From the IMG/VR virus record IMGVR_UViG_3300027876_000001, positions 1 through 56,637 of that record: a stretch of 56,637 bases of DNA; one strand, written 5' to 3'. A model generated the notes under the pieces. The model saw nothing but the letters and a program-made list of their open reading frames with translations. It did not search any database and was not told where the DNA came from. The first letter of the stretch is position 1. Each line of letters starts with the position of its first letter. Source of the DNA: a virus. A program made the position numbers and the translations under genes. Shown one piece after another: positions 21,886 to 32,298 of the stretch.

Positions 21886-24800
21886 TTAGAACCCGGACTG
21901 ATTGCGAATGCCACCCGGCCGGAAGGCGCGGTTGATCCGTTCATCGACCATGCCCTGCATCTCCCGGACGATGCCCTTGCCGAATTTTTGTCCCTGCTCC
22001 TCCGTGGCTCCCTGAGGCTGCGTAACGTTGATGGTGGGAGACAGGACCACGGTGTTGCTGTTTGCGGCGCCAGCGGGTGCCAGACTGGCCATTTGGGCGG
22101 GTGTGAAAACGCCTTCGTCCCGCTTGAGGATCGCAGGCATCTCCCCGGCTTTGAGGGCTGGTTCCTTCGCCGCTCCCGGCTTGCCTGTATGGAACCGGGG
22201 GGCCGTGGAGAAGGTCGAGCTTGGCACGGATCTGATGGGGGCCGTATCCTGTCCCACGATGCCACCGGTGTGGAACGGCATGCCGCCACCCATTGCCATG
22301 CCACCGGCCATCGCGCCACCACCAGCCATGGCACCACCCATGAACATGCTATTCAGACCCATGGCGAGCGGGATGGTGATGGCCTGGCGGACAGCCATAC
22401 GAGCAAGATCCGCCGCGATGGATTTTGCCATCGAGGCAAAGGCTTCCTTGACGCCCTTGGTCCCGGTGATGATGTCCACCAAGGCATCCTCGAACGACAT
22501 CAAACCGTCATGGGACAGGGAGCGCATCTGTTCGTTAAGCGTCAGGCCGCTGTCGGCAAGGCCACGCAGGGAGTCGTTCTGGCGGTTGAGTTGGTCCGTG
22601 GCAACAGCCGTATCACCGGCCAACTGGATCATCTTCTGACTATACTCGTCGGTGGCCGCCCCGTTCTGCTCAATCAGTTGGGCTTCCATCTGGAGTTCGG
22701 CGCTGCGCCGGACATAGGCTTCACCGAGCAGGCTGAGGGCACCCGTCTGGTTCTCGATGGCAACGATGCCGCGCTCTGAGCTGCCGATGGCCCGTTCCTG
22801 GGCATCGCTGTATTCGGCTATCGCCCGATTACCGCCACTCTCCACGAAGGCATCTGCTCCCTTGGTGTTGCGCGGAGTTCCCTGAGAGCGCAGTTCCTGT
22901 TCCGCCTGAAGCTCTCCCAGCCTGCGGATGCGCTCAACGCCGACCAGCTTGAGGGCTTCACGCTCCTCGTTGAGTTCATCAATGGTATCCCGGTTGGCGC
23001 GGGTGCCTTGGGCAATCTCCTTCTCCTGGTTGGCCCTGAGGCGCGCCGCCATCAGTTCTTCCAGGCTTCTGATGGCTTCATCGTTACCGACGACACCAAG
23101 CTCGATGGCCCGCTGCCTGGCCTCCTGAGCGAGGGCTTCCATGTTGGCTGCTTCGGCACTCTTGAGTTCTGCCTGCGCCATCGCCTCGATCTGGCTGATC
23201 TCATCCCGCAGATCCATCTTGGCACCCTCGAAGGCGGAGGCCGTCTTGGCGTCGTACAACGTGCCGATCAGTTCTTCCAGCTTGGCCTTCTGCCCGGCCG
23301 TCAGCTTCTCGGACAGGGCATGGACCTGGTTCATAATGGCCTGCTTGCGGGTCTGGTTCTCGACCGCCGCGGCACCTTCGTTCTGGGCCGAGGCCAGTTC
23401 CCGCTCAGCCGTGATACTTTCGGACAGTTCCCGAAGCTTTTCTCCGTAGATGTCCTGTGGCCCGGCGCGGCCGACCCGATTGCCCTGATTAATCTTGAAC
23501 TGCTCGACCGATTCCCGCCCCTTCAGGGCGACGTATTGCTTGTCCTCTTCGGACAGATCCTTCATCTCGACATTGCCGAGCTTGCTGCGCAGTTCGATCA
23601 GCCCTCTGAGTTCACCCGCCTCCTTGGCCTTTTTCTCGGAGCGACCGCGCTCCAGGGCCGCCAGCTTACCCATGGTATCGACCTGGAGTTCCAGGGCGGC
23701 GTTCTCCCGCTTGCGCTCCTCCGTGGTCTTGGCGACCTCCTGGCGGGCACCGGCCTGAATAGTCGCCTGAACCTCGGCGTTGAACTTAGTTGGCCTCTCG
23801 TCATCTGGATTGATGCCTTTGGCCCGGAGGTTCTCTGTTTCCTGGAGAGCGCCGAGAAGGGCGATGCGCGGCGTTCCGGCTTCGTTGACCAGGACATTCG
23901 TCCGGCGCTGCTCATCCTGGATATTCTGATCAATCTCGGCACGCCGGGCTGACAGCATCTCAGATTTGGCGGCCTCATCATGGGCCTGGGCCAGCCTGAA
24001 GATTTCGTCTGCCGCAGCTCCGCTGATGCGGATACCGGCTTCCACGGCCTTGTTACGGGCTTCCTGGGCTATCCGCTCGGTGTTGGCGGCATCACCGCCC
24101 CGGTTGTGGGCACTGGACAGGGCATCCAGGTCCGCAATCGACTGACGCATCTCCTGGAGGACCGGACCGGCGGCGACCTGCTCCTTGACGTCGCGCAGTT
24201 CCTGGTACTTGGCCTTGAGCTGTTCCAGGCCCTCTGCGCTGACCTTGCCGTCGAATTCCTTGATCTTGGAGGCCATCTCCAGTTCGGACTTGATCTCGGC
24301 GGCAGCGGCGGCACTGCGGGTGAAGGCTTCCGCCAGCTTTTGTTGCTCCGAGATCAACCGTTCGACTTCCGCCAGGGACTTGCGCAGGTTGTCGGCCATC
24401 GGGGTGTCGTTGATGGCGCTCTGCGTTCCGGCATTGGTCATCCCGCCGGTAAAGCCGGTTTGGCCGACCATCAGGGCACGTTGGGCCGCGCGTTCCCTCT
24501 GGCGGGCAAGCTCCATCTCCCGCTTCTGCTTCTCGATGCTTTCTCCGGCGCCCATGCCGAACATACTGGCGATATCGGTTCCGAGACCGCCAAACTCGGC
24601 GCCGAGGCCGGTGGCGGCCATGGCTTCTTCGTACTTGCTGAGTTCCTTGGCCTTCTTGATGTTGTCGTCGTAGCGCTTCTGTTCTTCCCTGGCTCGGTCC
24701 CGGATGGCGGTGATGGCGGCACGGTGCTCGGCGATCTCTTCCTTGTTGCCAGATGGTGTTGCCTTAAGCTTCTCCTGGAGGGACTTCAGCTCCTTCATCG

Positions 24801-26349
24801 CCTGATTGTGTTCAAGCTGGGCCTTGGTCGCCTGGCTCACCGACTTACTGTAGACATAGATCGCAGCCGCTCCGGCCAGCGCCACGGAGGCCAGTGCGAA
24901 CAGCGGATTGAGCATCATGAAGCGGGCGAGCAGGGCGAACTGGACGGCAAGCTCTCCGACCGCCGCCGCAATGCCCATGACCCAGCGCGTCACGCCGATA
25001 CCGACCAGGCCGATGAACGCCGCCTTGGTCAATTCTGCATTCTCGACCAGCAGCTTGAAGCCTCCGATCAAGGTATCCACGGCACTCTTGAGCGCCCCTC
25101 CGAGCTGGTTGGCGGTTTCCTTGCCGATATCGCTTTTGAGGAAAGTCGAAAGCTCGTCCGCGCCGTCCGCCAGGGCCTTGAGGAAGCCGCCATTGGCAAT
25201 GGTGGCCTTGATCTCGAACAGGGCGTTGTTGAAGCGCGTGAAGGCAGCAGTAGCAGTATCGACCTTATCTCCGGCAATCGCAAAATCACCCCGGATGGCA
25301 TCACCAAAAACGGCGAATAGACGGTCGGCGCTGACCGCACCATTCGCCATCGCTGTGCCAAGTTCTTGAGCACTCATACCAAGTGACTTGGCGGCAATGG
25401 CGAATGCACCTGGAAGTTGTTCCGCGAGCTGACCTTTCAGCTCTTCGGACATTATTTGCCCTTTTGAGGCAAATTGTTCTAAAGCTTTAAAGGCTCGTCC
25501 GGCCTGTTCCGGACTTCTGCCGAGCAGGGCCATGGCCTGGGCGACGGCGAAGAAACTGTCCTTGGCCTTGTCAGCATCGACATTGCCGCCCTTGATGGCT
25601 GCCGTGAAGTTGACGTATTCCTTGCCGGTGTGCTGGAGGTCCACACCAAGGCGATCCGTTTCGGTGCGCAGCCGCTCCATCTCGACCTTGCCCTGCGCGC
25701 TGGAGCCGGTGGCGACGTCGAGGCCCTTCTGTAGGTTCTCCATCTCCATGCCTGCCTTGGCGATGCTCTGTCCGACCGCAACGATACCGATCCCGGCGAT
25801 CATGCCGTTCATGCTGGTGAACGAGGCGCCAACCTTGCCGAAGGCTTCTGACAGCTTCTGCGCGTGCTTGACCGCCAGGCTGGTATCGAAGACTGGCATT
25901 GCCAACCGGGACAGCTTCTTCATCGACTGTTCTATGGCGACAGAGGCGTCATAGGTCGATGCCCTGGAAGTGGCCAGCCGCTGGGTTACCTGCCTCCGGG
26001 TTTCCGGCATCGGGCCAACGAATGCTGGGGAACTGGGCGGTGCCACCATGGACCGGCGTTGCTGCTCTGCACGCGCGGTCTGGGACTGGGCCTGTCGAGA
26101 AGCACGGTCCCTGGCCCGGTTCTCCGCTTCTGCCCGAATAGCCGGGGCCGCCGTCTGGGCCGCGGTCGGTCCGCTGGCGGGTGCCCGCGTGGTGGTGACG
26201 CCCCGCTTGGCTCCCAGCTTGTCAAGCGCTCCCTGAGTCCGCTCAGCCTTGTCGGCAAGCTTCCCCAGCGCCGCTTCCAGGGCCGTGATGCCGGAAAGGG
26301 CCTTAGAGCCATCGACCAGAAGCTGAAGATGGGCGTCTCTCTCTGTCAT
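21886..26349 (-). CDS. H: tape measure protein, lambda gpH family
   Basis: 1487 aa. N-terminal tape-measure domain (about 190-380: VATGSSAQGKVEMERLRTET, LKGQLAEQLPGAFAIAAKSL, ADRLFAVFGDAIRG), a hydrophobic region (about 450-515), then ~750 residues of charged helix with Gln/Glu/Lys/Ala. The C-terminal part has SFEDALVDIITGTKGVKEAF, LARMAVRQAITIPLA and a Gly/Met-rich stretch, as in lambda gpH. It fixes tail length and helps deliver DNA across the envelope. At roughly 0.15 nm per residue this suggests a tail near 220 nm (inference). ATG overlaps the T-frame stop by ATGA. Confidence 0.93.
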   Translation of the reverse strand: MTERDAHLQLLVDGSKALSGITALEAALGKLADKAERTQGALDKLGAKRGVTTTRAPASGPTAAQTAAPAIRAEAENRARDRASRQAQSQTARAEQQRRSMVAPPSSPAFVGPMPETRRQVTQRLATSRASTYDASVAIEQSMKKLSRLAMPVFDTSLAVKHAQKLSEAFGKVGASFTSMNGMIAGIGIVAVGQSIAKAGMEMENLQKGLDVATGSSAQGKVEMERLRTETDRLGVDLQHTGKEYVNFTAAIKGGNVDADKAKDSFFAVAQAMALLGRSPEQAGRAFKALEQFASKGQIMSEELKGQLAEQLPGAFAIAAKSLGMSAQELGTAMANGAVSADRLFAVFGDAIRGDFAIAGDKVDTATAAFTRFNNALFEIKATIANGGFLKALADGADELSTFLKSDIGKETANQLGGALKSAVDTLIGGFKLLVENAELTKAAFIGLVGIGVTRWVMGIAAAVGELAVQFALLARFMMLNPLFALASVALAGAAAIYVYSKSVSQATKAQLEHNQAMKELKSLQEKLKATPSGNKEEIAEHRAAITAIRDRAREEQKRYDDNIKKAKELSKYEEAMAATGLGAEFGGLGTDIASMFGMGAGESIEKQKREMELARQRERAAQRALMVGQTGFTGGMTNAGTQSAINDTPMADNLRKSLAEVERLISEQQKLAEAFTRSAAAAAEIKSELEMASKIKEFDGKVSAEGLEQLKAKYQELRDVKEQVAAGPVLQEMRQSIADLDALSSAHNRGGDAANTERIAQEARNKAVEAGIRISGAAADEIFRLAQAHDEAAKSEMLSARRAEIDQNIQDEQRRTNVLVNEAGTPRIALLGALQETENLRAKGINPDDERPTKFNAEVQATIQAGARQEVAKTTEERKRENAALELQVDTMGKLAALERGRSEKKAKEAGELRGLIELRSKLGNVEMKDLSEEDKQYVALKGRESVEQFKINQGNRVGRAGPQDIYGEKLRELSESITAERELASAQNEGAAAVENQTRKQAIMNQVHALSEKLTAGQKAKLEELIGTLYDAKTASAFEGAKMDLRDEISQIEAMAQAELKSAEAANMEALAQEARQRAIELGVVGNDEAIRSLEELMAARLRANQEKEIAQGTRANRDTIDELNEEREALKLVGVERIRRLGELQAEQELRSQGTPRNTKGADAFVESGGNRAIAEYSDAQERAIGSSERGIVAIENQTGALSLLGEAYVRRSAELQMEAQLIEQNGAATDEYSQKMIQLAGDTAVATDQLNRQNDSLRGLADSGLTLNEQMRSLSHDGLMSFEDALVDIITGTKGVKEAFASMAKSIAADLARMAVRQAITIPLAMGLNSMFMGGAMAGGGAMAGGMAMGGGMPFHTGGIVGQDTAPIRSVPSSTFSTAPRFHTGKPGAAKEPALKAGEMPAILKRDEGVFTPAQMASLAPAGAANSNTVVLSPTINVTQPQGATEEQGQKFGKGIVREMQGMVDERINRAFRPGGIRNQSGF

Positions 26350-27124: not shown

Positions 27125-27328
27125 TCAGCGGACAGCCATACGACGGCGCAGGGCAGACCGGAGTTGACCGTGGAGATGACCCCGAACCCGCTTCGGCATC
27201 CGGACCCACAGTTCAGACAGCCTGACGGCTTCCTGGTGCTCGGCAGCCGTCGCCATCAAAGCCTCATCAATGGCTTCCCACAGTTCCGGATATCCAACTT
27301 CGGAAAGCCACTTCGAAGCGGTCGTCAT
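27125..27328 (-). CDS. small tail-operon protein of unknown function
   Basis: 67 aa from ATG at 27328 with GAGG 5 bases upstream; an ATG at 27352 (75 aa) is possible and would overlap the previous gene. Helical, basic C-terminus (GHLHGQLRSALRRRMAVR). Contains WLSEVGYPELWEAIDEALMA. Lies between the tail-tube region and G, where small accessory genes are common. No homologue recognised. Confidence 0.6.
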   Translation of the reverse strand: MTTASKWLSEVGYPELWEAIDEALMATAAEHQEAVRLSELWVRMPKRVRGHLHGQLRSALRRRMAVR

Positions 27329-27335
27329 CGCGGCC

Positions 27336-27734
27336 TCATCTCGCGTAGGCATACAGTTTCCAGGCGGGCATCACGAAGACATAGTGATGCTCGACGCCGC
27401 TGAACATCTCAGCCGGATCGAGATCGCAGGCCACCTCAACCACGGCATCCCGAAAATCCTCATCGTCGGTCGGCGGCACAATGTCAGTGATTGTGGCAGC
27501 CCGGCCGAAATAGGTCACCCGCTGTTCCAGTCGGTACGGCAGGATCGGGTCCGCCGCGACCATGGTATTCTCCATCGTCATCGCCATGATCCGGTTGCCA
27601 TCCTCGCCGCGCTGATCCATCAGGACGCGATAACTGAAGTCAACAGGACCGCCATAGACATCATGGACGGTCCCGAGACCCTTGGGGTCACCATGGACGA
27701 CGGTGACCCGCTGACCGAGCAGGAACTGGGACAT
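27336..27734 (-). CDS. small SH3/KOW-like protein of unknown function
   Basis: 132 aa. First half GQRVTVVHGDPKGLGTVHDV and later LEQRVTYFGRAATITDIV look like two small SH3-barrel or KOW-type beta repeats. ATG at 27734 shares a base with the stop of the upstream gene; GTG at 27737 is also possible. Tail operon position suggests an accessory or virion protein; no firm family. Confidence 0.62.
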   Translation of the reverse strand: MSQFLLGQRVTVVHGDPKGLGTVHDVYGGPVDFSYRVLMDQRGEDGNRIMAMTMENTMVAADPILPYRLEQRVTYFGRAATITDIVPPTDDEDFRDAVVEVACDLDPAEMFSGVEHHYVFVMPAWKLYAYAR

Positions 27735-27946
27735 CACTTGTCCGCAGCCCCTGGCTCGATGTAGATCCGCGCCCTGACCATGCAGTCCTTGGCCTCCAGG
27801 AGCTTGCGCAGGCCCACCGTGCGCTCGGGATTGCTCGGCAGGGTGTCCACCATCTCCTGGGCTATTTCGTTGAAGCGCTGGCTGATGCCCTGGAGGTGCG
27901 GCGGTAGGTGGGCATAGCCGAAGAACTGCAACATACGGTCATACAT
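27734..27946 (-). CDS. small helical-hairpin protein, possibly Acb2/Tad1-hairpin type
   Basis: 70 aa, with GGAG at 8-base spacing before the ATG at 27946. Core PHLQGISQRFNEIAQEMV followed by LPSNPERTVGLRKLLEAKDC and MVRARI. This is a widespread small phage family (HLPxxLQ...LPxxPERTxALRKLLEAKDxxVRA). Its second half resembles the P-x3-E-K/R-S/T-x-A-L-x-K-L-x-E-A pattern of Acb2/Tad1-hairpin proteins, some of which sequester CBASS or Thoeris signal nucleotides. The link is by pattern only. It lies directly behind the GIY-YIG cassette terminator. Confidence 0.65.
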   Translation of the reverse strand: MYDRMLQFFGYAHLPPHLQGISQRFNEIAQEMVDTLPSNPERTVGLRKLLEAKDCMVRARIYIEPGAADK

Positions 27947-28013: not shown

Positions 28014-28826
28014 TTAGAGGAGAGAAGGTTGATCCTGGTCGGCGATGGGATGGGTGGGAGTGGCTGCGGCGTGTCTAACGCACCAATTTCTCGCTGTTAC
28101 GGCGCTGACACCGTACTTTTTCCCAAGTGGTCTGTATTCCATTCCAGCAGCACGGTCGGAGATCAGTGCAGAGATCTGTTCCGGTGTCAGGATCGTGGAT
28201 TTGCCGCGCGTCTTGTCGTTAAGAGCGCGGAGGTGGTCATGGTGCGCGAGGTTGGCTTTCATTTCTGCTGACTTTTGCGCGCGACGTTCTTCAGAGTGCT
28301 TCTTTCCTCTGTTTGCCGCAGCCGCCATGCGCTGTATTTCTGGTGTCATTGCGCCACGCCTTATATTCGCCTGACGTATCTTCTCTCCTGTTTCCGCTGT
28401 GAATGCCGCAGATCCAGCGTATTTTCGAAGGATCTCCTTATGAGCCTCAGACCTTGTGCGCCCCCTATTGGCTGCTCCAATCTTGGCAGCCTTTTCTGGA
28501 CTGCAAGGAATGCCCAAAGTAGATCCTGCTACCTTGGAGATATTGTACCCTATATCTGGATTGTATGCGGTGAAACGATCCAGATATTCTTGTTCTGTTT
28601 CTATCAGAAGACTCTCAGAAACGCGAACCTGGATGTCGAAGCAAAAAGCGCCTGATCCATATTTCCTCCAGGCGCTTTGCAGGTGGCGGTTAGGATGAAG
28701 ACCTCTTTCAAGGTTCCATCGGTGGTCTAACCATCTTTGACCAAGGTTAACAGCACTTCCTATGTAAATCTTGCCATTAACCGCGTTGGTGATTTTGTAT
28801 ATGCCGCTGTCACGTTTTCTTTTCAT
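28014..28826 (-). CDS. free-standing GIY-YIG homing endonuclease with NUMOD3-like repeats
   Basis: 270 aa. N-terminal GIY-YIG nuclease: SGIYKITNAVNGKIYIGSA (GIY at 8-10, YIG at 21-23), catalytic Arg31 in LGQRWLDHR and Glu78 in ETEQEYLDRF. Middle has NUMOD3-type DNA-binding repeats (SPEKAAKIGAANRGRTRSE, RGKKHSEERRAQKS). The C-terminus is a helix-turn-helix (LTPEQISALISDRAAG, GKKYGVSAVTARNW). Such genes spread by cutting alleles lacking them. It has its own promoter and terminator and sits just 3' of the tail-tube gene, whose frame is uninterrupted, so it is free-standing, not intronic. Confidence 0.92.
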   Translation of the reverse strand: MKRKRDSGIYKITNAVNGKIYIGSAVNLGQRWLDHRWNLERGLHPNRHLQSAWRKYGSGAFCFDIQVRVSESLLIETEQEYLDRFTAYNPDIGYNISKVAGSTLGIPCSPEKAAKIGAANRGRTRSEAHKEILRKYAGSAAFTAETGEKIRQANIRRGAMTPEIQRMAAAANRGKKHSEERRAQKSAEMKANLAHHDHLRALNDKTRGKSTILTPEQISALISDRAAGMEYRPLGKKYGVSAVTARNWCVRHAAATPTHPIADQDQPSLL

Positions 28827-28893: not shown

Positions 28894-29328
28894 TTATGGA
28901 CCAAGTCCAGCGAAATCCCAAACCACGCTCCCCGTGATTTCAAGTGTAACTGTTGCAGTTGTAAGTGCATCTACGCCGCCGCCGATGGTAAAGCCCATCA
29001 CGTAAGCGGCGAACGTTGCCGTACTGTTCGCTGCATTGCTGAACGTGATCTTGAAGTTTTTCTTAATCTGCGCTGCACGGTCAGCAAGTAGAGCCTGTTG
29101 TCCGGTATCCCCAGGAACAAAATTCAACTCTAGCGTGAGCTGACCTTCGTCCTGCAACCCTAAGACCTTTTCCTTCCCTGTACTCAGCAACGTAGTGGCA
29201 TCAATGACTGCCGCACTACCACCTGGGCCTGAAAAAGAGCGAATTTCCGCAAGGGAAGTGTATGTGCCAGGAGTCGTACCCTCTCGGGCGATGATCGTTC
29301 CCTGGGCGTTGAACGCATTACTGGCTAT
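28894..29328 (-). CDS. V: major tail tube protein, lambda gpV-like, apparent AUA start
   Basis: 144 aa if started at ATA (29328). The frame is closed upstream by TAG at 29340 and contains no ATG, GTG or TTG before codon 47 (TTG at 29190), which would delete a third of the protein. The ATA is followed by ASNAFNAQGTIIARE, a proper tail-tube N-terminus, and preceded by a perfect AGGAGG at 5-base spacing. Rest includes GSAAVIDATTLL, LEDEGQLTLELN-like text, FKITFSN and VTLEITGSVVWDF. This should be the most abundant tail protein, polymerising around the tape measure. Flanked by two endonuclease cassettes. A sequencing error changing ATG to ATA cannot be excluded. Confidence 0.8.
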   Translation of the reverse strand: MASNAFNAQGTIIAREGTTPGTYTSLAEIRSFSGPGGSAAVIDATTLLSTGKEKVLGLQDEGQLTLELNFVPGDTGQQALLADRAAQIKKNFKITFSNAANSTATFAAYVMGFTIGGGVDALTTATVTLEITGSVVWDFAGLGP

Positions 29329-29339
29329 TGTAGCCTCCT
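29326..29339 (-). promoter_or_regulatory. strong ribosome site before AUA codon of tail tube gene
   Basis: AGGAGG at 29334-29339, 5 bases before ATA at 29326-29328. It is among the best Shine-Dalgarno matches in the window, on the gene with the worst start codon. The pairing decides the start. Confidence 0.7.
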
Positions 29340-29371
29340 ATGTAACAGAGATGTTGAAGAGTGGGCAACAA

Positions 29372-29419: not shown

Positions 29420-30244
29420 TTATATGACGTGTTTCCACCGTCTGTTTTTCCGAACGCCTTGTATCAAGCCGTGTGAAACGCCGTATTTTTCAGCCAACTC
29501 CCTGTCTGAATACAATCCAGCATCCCGTCTGATGGCTCTAACATCATCATCTGTTAGCTTAGCGGAGACATGATCAACGCCTCTGCAATTTCTTTCCTTG
29601 GAAACCATATCATCAACGTTGTCCTGATGGGTTCCTAGGAAGAGATGGTCTGGACGGACACATGCAGGATGGTCGCATTTATGAAGCACAAACTGACCAT
29701 CTGGAATCGGTCCATTCTCCAACTCCCACGATACGGCATGGGATGTTGTAACATCACTGGCTTTTGAGCCGGACATGTTGATCATCCCATAGCCGAACTT
29801 ATGCAAGGCTCCGGTGAAGACCCAACAATCCCCATTCGGCCCATGGCCAGCGGTTTTGTCCACCTTGCTGTAGAGTTTGCAACGGTTCGAGCAGTAGCGT
29901 GCCCGAGATGCCCTCTGCGCACCAGGCTTCAGCGTCGGCGCCGGAATAGGGGTCTGGCAGTTCTGGCACAGAACTACCCGGCTCTGCCGCTTCTTCTCCA
30001 CCCGCTTTTCTCGATTGACCTCTTCGCTTTTAGACCACGTAGCCTTAGCACGCTCAGGATCTGCCTCCCGCCACTTGGCGGCGTTTTCCCTTACACACTC
30101 CACGCACGCACCGGAATTCACATTGCGTTCAGCAATATGACCGCGAGAACATGCTTCACCTGTGAAGTATCTCTTAGATCCGGAAGCTATCGCCTCGTCT
30201 ATCGTGACAAGCGGACGGTTTTCGGGTATGAATTCGGTAGCCAT
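29420..30244 (-). CDS. free-standing HNH homing endonuclease
   Basis: 274 aa from ATG at 30244, with AGGA close upstream. Cys pairs near the N-terminus (CSRGH, CVEC) and CQNCQ with YCSNRC (residues 93-122) look like zinc ribbons. HNH core near 185-212: FVLHKCDHPACVRPDHLFLG and THQDNVDDM, matching the HNH_3 group of phage endonucleases. C-terminus is a helix-turn-helix (LTDDDVRAIRRDAGLYSDRE, LAEKYGVSHGLIQ) similar in pattern to that of the GIY-YIG protein. Own promoter, 5' hairpin and UUCG terminator. Inserted between the three small paralogues and the tail-tube gene. Confidence 0.92.
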   Translation of the reverse strand: MATEFIPENRPLVTIDEAIASGSKRYFTGEACSRGHIAERNVNSGACVECVRENAAKWREADPERAKATWSKSEEVNREKRVEKKRQSRVVLCQNCQTPIPAPTLKPGAQRASRARYCSNRCKLYSKVDKTAGHGPNGDCWVFTGALHKFGYGMINMSGSKASDVTTSHAVSWELENGPIPDGQFVLHKCDHPACVRPDHLFLGTHQDNVDDMVSKERNCRGVDHVSAKLTDDDVRAIRRDAGLYSDRELAEKYGVSHGLIQGVRKNRRWKHVI

Positions 30245-30275
30245 TTTTCCTGGTCCTTTCAGGAGTTGATGGTAA

Positions 30276-30310
30276 GGACCGGTCAGGTGCTTGAGACACC
30301 TTTCCGGTCC
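30276..30310 (-). promoter_or_regulatory. 5' stem-loop of the HNH transcript
   Basis: Arms GGACCGG / CCGGTCC (7 bp) and inner AGGTG / CACCT (5 bp) with a 2-by-2 internal loop and a 7-base terminal loop. It begins at the expected transcription start (about 30310) and ends 31 bases before the ATG. No U-run follows, so it is probably an mRNA 5' end element and not a terminator. Confidence 0.6.
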
Positions 30311-30316
30311 GCTCTC

Positions 30317-30325
30317 AGTATAGCA
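30317..30325 (-). promoter_or_regulatory. extended -10 promoter of the HNH gene
   Basis: TGC-TATACT on the minus strand is an extended -10 (TGnTATAAT, one mismatch). No good -35 box lies 16-18 bases upstream. It resembles the TGCTATAAT of the GIY-YIG gene. Confidence 0.5.
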
Positions 30326-30330
30326 CAAAA

Positions 30331-30495
30331 TCACGCCACCGCCACCGGCAACCCGGCCACCAGCCTCAGCCAGTGCTTGCCGTCTGAGTAGGCAACGCAG
30401 GGGGCGCCGACATTGCCGTCCGTCACGCGGACGAGCCAGTCCTTGTGGGTTGTGGCGTCTGGCAGGGTTTCGACAGTGTAGCAGGGCAGAACCAT
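30331..30495 (-). CDS. small WLRL-type virion-like protein, third of three paralogues
   Basis: 54 aa from ATG at 30495. Contains VETLPDATTHKDWLVRVTDG, NVGAPCVAYSDGKHWLRLV. The block VTdGnxGaPCxAxSdGxxWLRL is shared with the two genes upstream. Similar short beta modules end many phage fibres, where they help trimerise or cap; here they are separate proteins. Probably a structural or decoration protein of the tail or neck. Confidence 0.68.
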   Translation of the reverse strand: MVLPCYTVETLPDATTHKDWLVRVTDGNVGAPCVAYSDGKHWLRLVAGLPVAVA

Positions 30496-31468: not shown

Positions 31469-31873
31469 TCAGGCCGCTTTCTGTTCATCGTAGGAGAAGA
31501 CGATGCGGACCTGGGTCTGGTCCTTGGCATCATCCCCCTGACCGACCTCCAGCAGGCTGCCGGTGCCGGTGGTGAGATTGCCGAAGATCTTGCCCTCCAG
31601 GATGTTCAGGACCATGTGGGACAGATCCGAGGAGGCCCTGGTGCCACTTCCCAGAGGCACGAAGATCTGCACGAAGCAGATGCCACGCCGCTCGAAGTTC
31701 ATGATGTTGCCGGACCAGGAGCGCAGGCGGGATTCCGCATGGATGATCGTGAAGCGGACCCATTGGCTATCCGGCATGGGTGGCGTGGTGTTGCCCCACG
31801 CAATCGGCGTGGTGTTGCCCCAACCGTTCTTGAACGCGGTTTCCAGGATGGCCTTGGCCTCACTTGGGGACAC
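31469..31873 (-). CDS. U: tail terminator protein, gpU-like (DUF4128 type)
   Basis: 134 aa from a GTG at 31873. Pattern WVRFTIIHAESRLRSW, GICFVQIFVPLGSGTRASSD, LSHMVLNILEGKIF and VRIVFSYDEQ is that of DUF4128-type phage tail terminators, analogous to lambda gpU. It caps the finished tail tube as a hexamer and provides the head-binding surface. Order Z-like gene, then U, then V agrees with lambda. Confidence 0.82.
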   Translation of the reverse strand: MSPSEAKAILETAFKNGWGNTTPIAWGNTTPPMPDSQWVRFTIIHAESRLRSWSGNIMNFERRGICFVQIFVPLGSGTRASSDLSHMVLNILEGKIFGNLTTGTGSLLEVGQGDDAKDQTQVRIVFSYDEQKAA

Positions 31874-31881
31874 CTAGGCGG

Positions 31882-32298
31882 TCACTTCATCTCTTGGAGG
31901 GCGGCATCGACGGCGAACGACATCATGCCGCCGGGAGCCTGCGTGCTGCTGCCACCTTCTAGCGTCTCGATATAGTGGACGTTGTTGCGGATGAAGATCA
32001 TCTGGGCAAAGCGGTAGGCGGCGGCGACGGCAGCGATGTTGCCTTCGTTGATCTGGATCGCCTCGGCACGGGTGCTGCCCTTGGAGCCCGCGGTATAGTC
32101 TGGCTCTATCATGGAAGGCGAGTTGATTTGGGCGACCCAACCGCTCATGGCGCGGGATGTGTCTATGGGCGTGTGCTGGTAGGCGGCGCGGTGGGCCGCC
32201 GCCGCGACCCGCTTGACCCAGAGCGTATGCTGGAGTCGAACGTCCCGTGTGAAGTTCCGCAGTTGATCCCGGAACAGGCGGATGGTTTGGCGGGCCAT
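31882..32298 (-). CDS. tail completion/neck protein, HK97 gp10 or gpZ-like
   Basis: 138 aa. Contains VKRVAAAAHRAAYQHTPIDT, SRAMSGWVAQINSP, AAVAAAYRFAQMIFIRNNVH and YIETLEGGSS. This is the signature arrangement of HK97-gp10-like/lambda gpZ neck proteins (R....a.....TPvDTG.l...W...........i.N..pYa..lE.G.S). Needed to make tails competent for head joining. ATG overlaps the upstream stop by ATGA. Confidence 0.85.
   Translation of the reverse strand: MARQTIRLFRDQLRNFTRDVRLQHTLWVKRVAAAAHRAAYQHTPIDTSRAMSGWVAQINSPSMIEPDYTAGSKGSTRAEAIQINEGNIAAVAAAYRFAQMIFIRNNVHYIETLEGGSSTQAPGGMMSFAVDAALQEMK

What the first reader, a model, noticed from the sequence alone, without database searches (positions are those of the whole stretch)
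27734..27946. Possible cyclic-nucleotide sponge (Acb2/Tad1-hairpin type) inside the tail operon
The 70-aa protein has the P-x3-E-R-T-x-G-L-x-K-L-x-E-A pattern that resembles the second helix of Acb2/Tad1-hairpin proteins, which block CBASS and Thoeris by binding their signals. It is next to the moron-like GIY-YIG cassette. If right, a whole group of widespread small phage proteins with PERTxALRKLLEAKD would be candidate anti-defence factors.
Basis: inference. Interest (0 to 1): 0.5.

Follow-up and report, generated by a model that had tools for sequence, protein, structure and literature searches.

The report
Widespread phage cousin of Acb2 sponges
A 70-residue phage protein found in very different phages is a distant, uncatalogued cousin of proteins that soak up bacterial alarm molecules, so it may be another way for phages to silence host defences; the soaking-up itself has not been tested.

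Summary
The ORF is real: 70 aa, minus strand 27734-27946, motif exactly as described. It belongs to a large, strongly conserved phage family with no Pfam or NCBIfam family, found in at least 349 of 50,697 phage records.

Direct comparison with canonical Acb2 (T4 Vs.4 and relatives) is negative. A second subfamily of certified Acb2/Tad1-hairpin proteins (PF24729, 'HPP' type) links the two: own family to bridge, hhalign E 8.7e-7 (0 of 100 permuted alignments as good); bridge to Acb2, E 4.8e-11. A profile of the own family alone, searched in 1,400 ORFs, returned bridge proteins as its first 61 hits. AlphaFold2 (pLDDT 94) gives a short N-helix plus a long two-helix hairpin, the published Acb2 protomer layout.

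Gene position is not conserved (265 neighbour clusters for 314 immediate neighbours). In 5 of 161 loci it lies directly beside a Tad2-like gene.

Most likely it is an oligomeric sponge for a nucleotide-type immune signal. Kinship is shown; oligomer, ligand and anti-defence effect are inferred. The family fails the PF24729 cut-off and has its own invariant residues (H13, E41, K53, D54, R58), so I file it as a sister branch, not a member.

The parts
27734..27946 (-). 70-aa Acb2/Tad1-hairpin-like protein (the finding)
   Evidence: intact ORF; phrog_1761 6e-27 and phrog_5120 2e-20, both unknown function; AlphaFold2 pLDDT 94.4
27920..27937 (-). short N-terminal helix, residues 4-9
   Evidence: predicted structure
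27893..27928 (-). N-terminal conserved segment, residues 7-18 (QFFGYAHLPPHL); F9, H13 and L14 invariant in 123 of 123 non-redundant sequences
   Evidence: conservation; aligned with the F-x-Y-H-P-P segment of bridge PF24729 proteins
27842..27901 (-). long helix 1 of the hairpin, residues 16-35
   Evidence: predicted structure
27767..27829 (-). long helix 2 of the hairpin, residues 40-60; E41, L49, L50, E51, K53, D54, R58 invariant in 123 of 123
   Evidence: predicted structure; conservation; aligned with helix 2 of PF24729 proteins
27336..27737 (-). 133-aa gene directly downstream, overlapping stop and start (TGATG); conserved beside the family gene in the syntenic contig L002 (55% identity); no PHROG match
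27125..27352 (-). 75-aa gene of the same operon, also in L002 (57%); no PHROG match
28014..28826 (-). GIY-YIG homing endonuclease directly upstream; context, not part of the system
   Evidence: phrog_314 1e-27, phrog_5123 8e-11
28894..29190 (-). major tail protein piece (context)
   Evidence: phrog_158 6e-19
21886..26349 (-). tail tape measure protein (context)
   Evidence: phrog_23940, 339 and 1716 on its C-terminal 700 aa

Best explanation
The gene encodes a small helical protein that is a remote homologue, and a sister branch, of the hairpin domain shared by the phage sponges Acb2 and Tad1. Each subunit is a short N-terminal helix plus a long antiparallel two-helix hairpin (predicted). By analogy with Acb2, subunits pack into a compact oligomer whose pockets are built from the N-terminal segment and the C-terminal helix of neighbouring subunits (inferred). 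These pockets hold a nucleotide-type alarm molecule made by the host's defence (CBASS, Thoeris or a similar system), so the effector is not triggered (inferred). The gene is an accessory cargo gene that different phages carry at different places, here inside the late tail operon (shown for position, inferred for role).
For: Homology. (a) 69 of 71 family members match phrog_1454 (best 9.9e-6), and 3 of 12 canonical Acb2-type proteins match the same phrog_1454 (best 1.2e-4). (b) All 10 of 10 bridge proteins collected around phrog_1454 are above the PF24729 cut-off. (c) A profile of those 10, with no own-family sequence in it, searched in 11,955 ORFs of 161 loci: ranks 1-134 are all own-family ORFs, the first other hit is a true PF24729 protein, 151 of 161 family ORFs are listed at E<=10 (best 3.2e-4). 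(d) Reciprocal: an own-family profile in 1,400 ORFs of 74 bridge loci: ranks 1-61 all bridge proteins, 69 of 73 listed, best 1.9e-5. (e) hhalign own family vs bridge: prob 91.5, E 8.7e-7, score 33.7 against 10.1 +/- 2.2 for 100 column-permuted alignments (max 18.7); bridge vs canonical Acb2: prob 97, E 4.8e-11; over 61 columns. (f) Bridge profile in the PDB: 'Acb2 homolog 43' (9ptq) 8.1e-9 and Tad1 2e-4. Fold. Own model H4-9, H16-35, H40-60, pLDDT 94.4; bridge model H4-10, H20-41, H46-69, pLDDT 90.5, whose best PDB match is T4 Vs.4 (Acb2) with cGAMP, prob 0.98. [quoted passage not shown] In the BFVD list of the own model, 14 of the 50 rows shown bear the name Acb2/Tad1 hairpin. Conservation is highest in the N-terminal segment (mean 3.1-3.2 bits) and helix 2 (3.7), lowest in helix 1 (2.4); [quoted passage not shown] Cargo gene: 314 immediate neighbours fall into 265 clusters. 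Five of 161 loci have a Tad2-like gene directly adjacent on the same strand, upstream in two and downstream in three (chance of 5 or more of 7 by random placement 1.8e-4).
Against: No member reaches the PF24729 cut-off: 2 of 71 match at best E 0.05; the window protein alone has no Acb2 match in Pfam or the PDB. Direct profile comparison with canonical Acb2 is null. Foldseek of the own model in the PDB lists no Acb2 or Tad1, although the bridge model does find them. The position I recall as Acb2 ligand lysine K26 is mostly G/C/H/A/S in this family, and the Trp of helix 2 (WAN or WGN in 62 of 68 bridge proteins) is absent; all 154 family sequences have KD there. The very strong conservation is unlike a fast arms-race protein. 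The oligomer was not modelled. The Tad2-like link was looked for after one example was seen, concerns 7 of 161 loci, and the window record itself holds no Tad2-like or PF24729 gene. Weak competing matches exist: archaeal DPS models in 53 of 71 members, best 7e-4.
Confidence: 0.55

Rival explanations
1. It shares the Acb2/Tad1 hairpin ancestry but has another job, for example binding one fixed host protein or metabolite to retune the cell, or working as an oligomerisation module (it is fused to other small domains in some phages).
For: Conservation is far stronger than expected of a sponge under diversifying selection: H13, E41, L49, L50, E51, K53, D54 and R58 are invariant in 123 of 123 non-redundant sequences from several phyla. 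In some phages the domain follows an N-terminal zinc-ribbon-like, P-loop-like or SH3-like segment (names are my reading of the letters).
Against: Both named relatives with known function, Acb2 and Tad1, are signal sponges; five loci pair it with a Tad2-like gene.
Confidence: 0.27
2. It is a small tail or virion protein, or a tail assembly factor, because it lies in the tail operon.
For: Lies between the major tail protein and tape measure genes; same place in contig L002.
Against: Elsewhere it lies beside head-tail connectors, portal, major capsid, lysis, terminase, RecT, integrase or early genes, with no conserved neighbour.
Confidence: 0.07
3. It binds nucleic acid (conserved R47, K48, K53, R58) and acts as a small transcription or mobility factor of the neighbouring homing endonucleases.
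For: Conserved basic residues in helix 2; GIY-YIG and HNH genes nearby.
Against: Syntenic L002 lacks the GIY-YIG gene between major tail protein and this gene; invariant acidic residues too (E41, E51, D54); no DNA-binding family match.
Confidence: 0.06
4. The resemblance is a chance likeness of amphipathic helices; the real relative is a ferritin-like DPS protein or nothing known.
For: NCBIfam archaeal DPS models match 53 of 71 members (best 7e-4); DPS chains rank 2 and 3 in the PDB profile search (E 0.12-0.13).
Against: The DPS match covers 36 residues and the protein is too short for a four-helix ferritin; the PF24729 link is reciprocal, covers up to 61 columns and beats reversed and permuted controls.
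Confidence: 0.05

Closest known systems
Acb2 / Vs.4 (canonical anti-CBASS 2 sponge; T4 Vs.4 7uq2, PaP2 p26 8h2j)
   Same: short N-helix plus long antiparallel hairpin; helix 2 in register with T4 Vs.4, 35% identical over 23 residues (itself not significant); an aromatic at position 11 as Y11 of p26 (my reading)
   Different: no significant direct similarity; K26 of p26 replaced by small or variable residues; own invariant or nearly invariant set H13, R47, K48, K53, D54, R58
'HPP'-type PF24729 proteins of actino-, Paenibacillus and environmental phages (phrog_1454), with the solved 'Acb2 homolog 43' 9ptq
   Same: reciprocal profile matches, same predicted fold, F-x-Y-H-P-P start and P-x-x-x-E-R/K-T/S-x-A helix-2 start
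   Different: bridge proteins have WAN/WGN (62 of 68) where all 154 family members have KD; helix 1 begins about four residues later in the bridge model
Tad1 C-terminal hairpin (Thoeris anti-defence 1, 8kbh, 7uav)
   Same: bridge profile matches it (1e-4); a profile of own family plus bridge lists it at 0.13
   Different: Tad1 has an N-terminal beta-sheet domain (passage of PMC12043709); the 70-aa protein has none
Tad2-like domain (PF11195)
   Same: found directly beside the gene in 5 of 161 loci; presumed same kind of role
   Different: unrelated sequence; Tad2 contains beta-strands (passage of PMC12043709)

Membership tests
PF24729 Acb2_Tad1_hairpin as defined by Pfam | score above the curated cut-off of 27 bits | tested here: not met
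   window protein: no PF24729 match at E<=1; 2 of 71 members match at best E 0.05; genome-wide PF24729 search finds nothing in the window
Acb2/Tad1 hairpin superfamily (homology, wider than the Pfam model) | common descent with certified PF24729 proteins, by reciprocal profiles | tested here: met
   only through the bridge subfamily
Acb2/Tad1 hairpin superfamily (homology, wider than the Pfam model) | protomer of short N-helix and two long antiparallel helices | tested here: met
   predicted, pLDDT 94.4; same layout predicted for a certified member; Foldseek of the own model against solved structures did not list Acb2
Acb2 | direct sequence similarity to canonical Acb2 (Vs.4, p26) | tested here: not met
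   (own-family profile vs 12 Acb2-type: prob 0.1; 50 of 100 permuted alignments as good)
Acb2 | cyclic-dinucleotide residues Y11 and K26 (recalled, not from a call) | tested here: inconclusive
   position 11 is Y/F/W in 121 of 123 sequences; position 26 is not K-conserved; equivalence of positions is by eye
Acb2 | compact homohexamer | not testable with these tools
   only single chains can be predicted
Acb2 / Tad1 sponge | binds and sequesters cyclic oligonucleotides or gcADPR; blocks CBASS or Thoeris | not testable with these tools
   needs purified protein and phage assays
Tad1 | N-terminal antiparallel beta-sheet before the hairpin | tested here: not met
   no strand in the model
DPS / ferritin-like | four-helix bundle in one chain (recalled as the ferritin-like fold) | tested here: not met
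   70 aa with two long helices; local 36-residue match only

The most novel reading that the evidence does not exclude
A third, very widespread branch of the Acb2/Tad1 hairpin superfamily, carried by phages and prophages of many bacterial phyla, with a nearly frozen pocket that captures one chemically invariant signal that neither Acb2 nor Tad1 is tuned to, possibly the messenger of a defence system not yet described.
Probability: 0.2. Interest if true: 0.8.

Novelty: new variant of a known kind. Interest (0 to 1): 0.55.

Why it matters
[quoted passage not shown] If this branch also binds signals, the hairpin sponge type would be far more widespread: the family occurs in phages of Vibrio, Erwinia, Mycobacterium, Acinetobacter, Brevibacterium, Gordonia and Ruegeria, and in genome records of Proteobacteria, Actinomycetota, Planctomycetes, Chloroflexota, Bacteroidota and others. 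In the phage records listed it is nearly always a 'hypothetical protein', and no Pfam or NCBIfam model covers it. Its invariant residues make a short list for mutants, and the protein is small enough for a quick binding screen.

Tried and rejected
Direct routes that failed: Pfam, NCBIfam and PDB with the single protein; own-family profile vs 12 Acb2-type proteins; BLASTP against the most similar-looking bridge protein. Foldseek and VIA-align of the own model in the PDB list only assorted helical proteins, no Acb2 or Tad1; short helical hairpins give weak hits there, so I rely on the sequence bridge and on the control model, which does find Vs.4, p26 and Tad1. Rejected: tail protein (position not conserved), homing-endonuclease partner (absent at that place in L002), DPS (partial local match). 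Looked for and not found: a tRNA, Rfam RNA families at gathering score, and, in 4.5 kb around the split-looking tail gene, an intron (seven matches at E<=1, all below their gathering scores, none an intron family). No paper found with the motif strings or PHROG numbers (0 papers) or 9PTQ (0); Acb2 searches gave no paper whose listing names this family. Papers seen: passages of PMC12043709, PMC11722364, PMC10419184, PMC12657218 and PMC13348362; all others only as listings. One viral-contig scan returned no relative and one returned only its own contig.

Rows dropped before counts: L036 (frame interrupted) and duplicate proteins in A1 (74 distinct proteins from 79, of which 70 plus the window went in); 154 unique of 161 core sequences; of 80 bridge loci I listed 74 and used 72 distinct sequences for the profile and 68 for A6. 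Neighbour scan A5 took 25 of the 80 bacterial loci, chosen by large contigs. The whole-record searches for PF24729 and PF11195 took 43 of the 80 IMG/VR records besides the window, and 20 and 27 of the bacterial genomes. Gene calls are crude.

Full report
OBSERVATION. The window is an IMG/VR virus record of 56,637 bases. The gene lies in a minus-strand tail operon: tail completion (31882-32298), tail terminator (31469-31873), HNH endonuclease (29420-30334), major tail protein piece (28894-29190), GIY-YIG homing endonuclease (28014-28826), this gene, a 133-aa gene that overlaps it (TGATG), a 75-aa gene, two small genes, tape measure.

FAMILY. The protein belongs to phrog_1761 (6e-27) and phrog_5120 (2e-20), both of unknown function. 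tblastn finds 349 of 50,697 phage records at E<=0.01 and 368 at 0.1. A GTDB scan gave 207 of 534 stretches, in records of Proteobacteria, Actinomycetota, Planctomycetes (Pan216 complete genome), Chloroflexota (Leptolinea complete genome), Bacteroidota (Flavilitoribacter) and, as metagenome bins, others. In 123 sequences under 80% identity, F9, H13, L14, E41, L49, L50, E51, K53, D54 and R58 never vary.

LINK TO ACB2/TAD1. The Pfam model PF24729 does not recognise the family: 2 of 71 members at best E 0.05. Against 12 canonical Acb2-type proteins, profile comparison is null. The bridge came from PHROGs: 69 of 71 family members match phrog_1454 (best 9.9e-6), as do 3 of 12 Acb2-type proteins (best 1.2e-4). 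A profile of these ten, holding no family member, was run over 11,955 ORFs of 161 loci. Its first 134 hits are all family ORFs, the 135th is the one true PF24729 gene in the set, and 129 family ORFs but no other ORF lie at E<=1. The window gene alone scores E 0.72. Because the family members resemble each other, these hits are not independent; the best single value is 3.2e-4. With a larger bridge profile, 124 family and 4 other ORFs (one of them the true PF24729 gene) lie at E<=1. In the other direction, the family profile over 1,400 ORFs of 74 bridge loci returns bridge proteins as its first 61 hits, best 1.9e-5. Shuffled and reversed controls stay lower: median real score 12.6 bits, 99th percentile of 2,887 shuffles 3.5 and maximum 10.4; 116 of 154 real sequences exceed every shuffle, the window sequence (9.9) does not. 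hhalign gives E 8.7e-7 for family to bridge and 4.8e-11 for bridge to canonical Acb2, each better than all of 100 permuted alignments. The bridge profile finds the solved 'Acb2 homolog 43' at 8.1e-9 and Tad1 at 2e-4.

FOLD. AlphaFold2 predicts helices 4-9, 16-35 and 40-60 at pLDDT 94.4. A certified bridge protein is predicted with helices 4-10, 20-41 and 46-69 at 90.5, and its best PDB matches are T4 Vs.4 with cGAMP, then Tad1. [quoted passage not shown] The own model finds no Acb2 in the PDB. In BFVD, after its own relatives, 14 of the 50 rows shown are named Acb2/Tad1 hairpin, each with a weak E-value (0.16 to 4.5); the base rate of that name was not measured.

WHAT IT MAY DO. [quoted passage not shown] In this family the N-terminal segment and the C-terminal helix are the most conserved parts (3.1-3.2 and 3.7 bits against 2.4 for helix 1), so a pocket in the same place is plausible. 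Its residues are its own, though: all 154 sequences have KD where 62 of 68 bridge proteins have a Trp motif. I therefore expect the same working principle with a different or narrower ligand. That is inference.

CONTEXT. The gene is cargo, not part of a fixed operon. 314 immediate neighbours in 161 loci fall into 265 clusters, the largest cluster of +-2 neighbours having 6 of 619. In 25 bacterial loci, neighbours include portal, terminase, lysis, RecT, integrase and head genes, and a Tad2-like gene. In named phages it sits between head-tail connectors (Gordonia Ruthy), just downstream of major capsid (Vibrio 1.237.A), between portal and major capsid (Acinetobacter Gln), near terminase (Phayonce; Ochrobactrum OH) or among early or metabolic genes (Adawi, Ruegeria V17, Acinetobacter W16, Clawz). 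Following the Tad2-like hit, 7 of 161 loci have a Tad2-like ORF in the fetched flanks, and in 5 of these it is the next gene on the same strand: upstream in L066 and L136, downstream in L003, L102 and L113. Random placement among called genes gives 5 or more of 7 with probability 1.8e-4; the three loci not used to build the search profile alone give 0.002. The loci are not fully independent (L113 and L136 are both sphingomonads), and 154 of 161 loci show nothing of the kind. One virus record carries this gene, a true PF24729 gene about 1.1 kb upstream and a Tad2-like gene farther off.

VERDICT. Homology to the Acb2/Tad1 hairpin superfamily: about 0.92. Sponge for a nucleotide-type immune signal: about 0.55. 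I file it as an unrecognised sister branch because the Pfam cut-off and the direct Acb2 comparison were tested and not met.

Noticed in passing
window 28894-29340: The window's major tail protein matches only positions 67-159 of phrog_158, while the syntenic contig L002 has a 149-aa version; the missing N-terminal part seems to lie in another frame (44-aa ORF 29184-29318), so the window copy may carry a frameshift.
   Followed up: partly
L039 4686-4943 and 6001-6195: One virus contig carries a certified PF24729 gene and, about 1.1 kb downstream, a member of the present family, plus a Tad2-like gene elsewhere on the contig: up to three candidate sponges in one phage.
   Followed up: partly
L179 765-1133; L187 3758-4186; L186 3680-4192: The domain is fused behind other small N-terminal segments: two CxxCxG repeats (Ochrobactrum OH, labelled anti-TRAP), a GPVGVGKS P-loop-like stretch (Erwinia Alexandra), and an SH3-like stretch (Gordonia Clawz). 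Domain names are my reading of the letters.
   Followed up: no
L081 1563-2081; L142 around 5193: Members with long C-terminal extensions, in L081 a coiled stretch that I recall as resembling the crAss001_48-related phage proteins (recalled, not tested).
   Followed up: no
window 27336-27737: The overlapping 133-aa gene downstream is conserved beside the family gene in L002 (55%) but has no PHROG match; its two halves look like SH3-type repeats by eye.
   Followed up: no
genome of L116 (Xenorhabdus szentirmaii): Seven Tad2-like (PF11195) matches in one genome record, one about 2.3 kb from the family gene.
   Followed up: no
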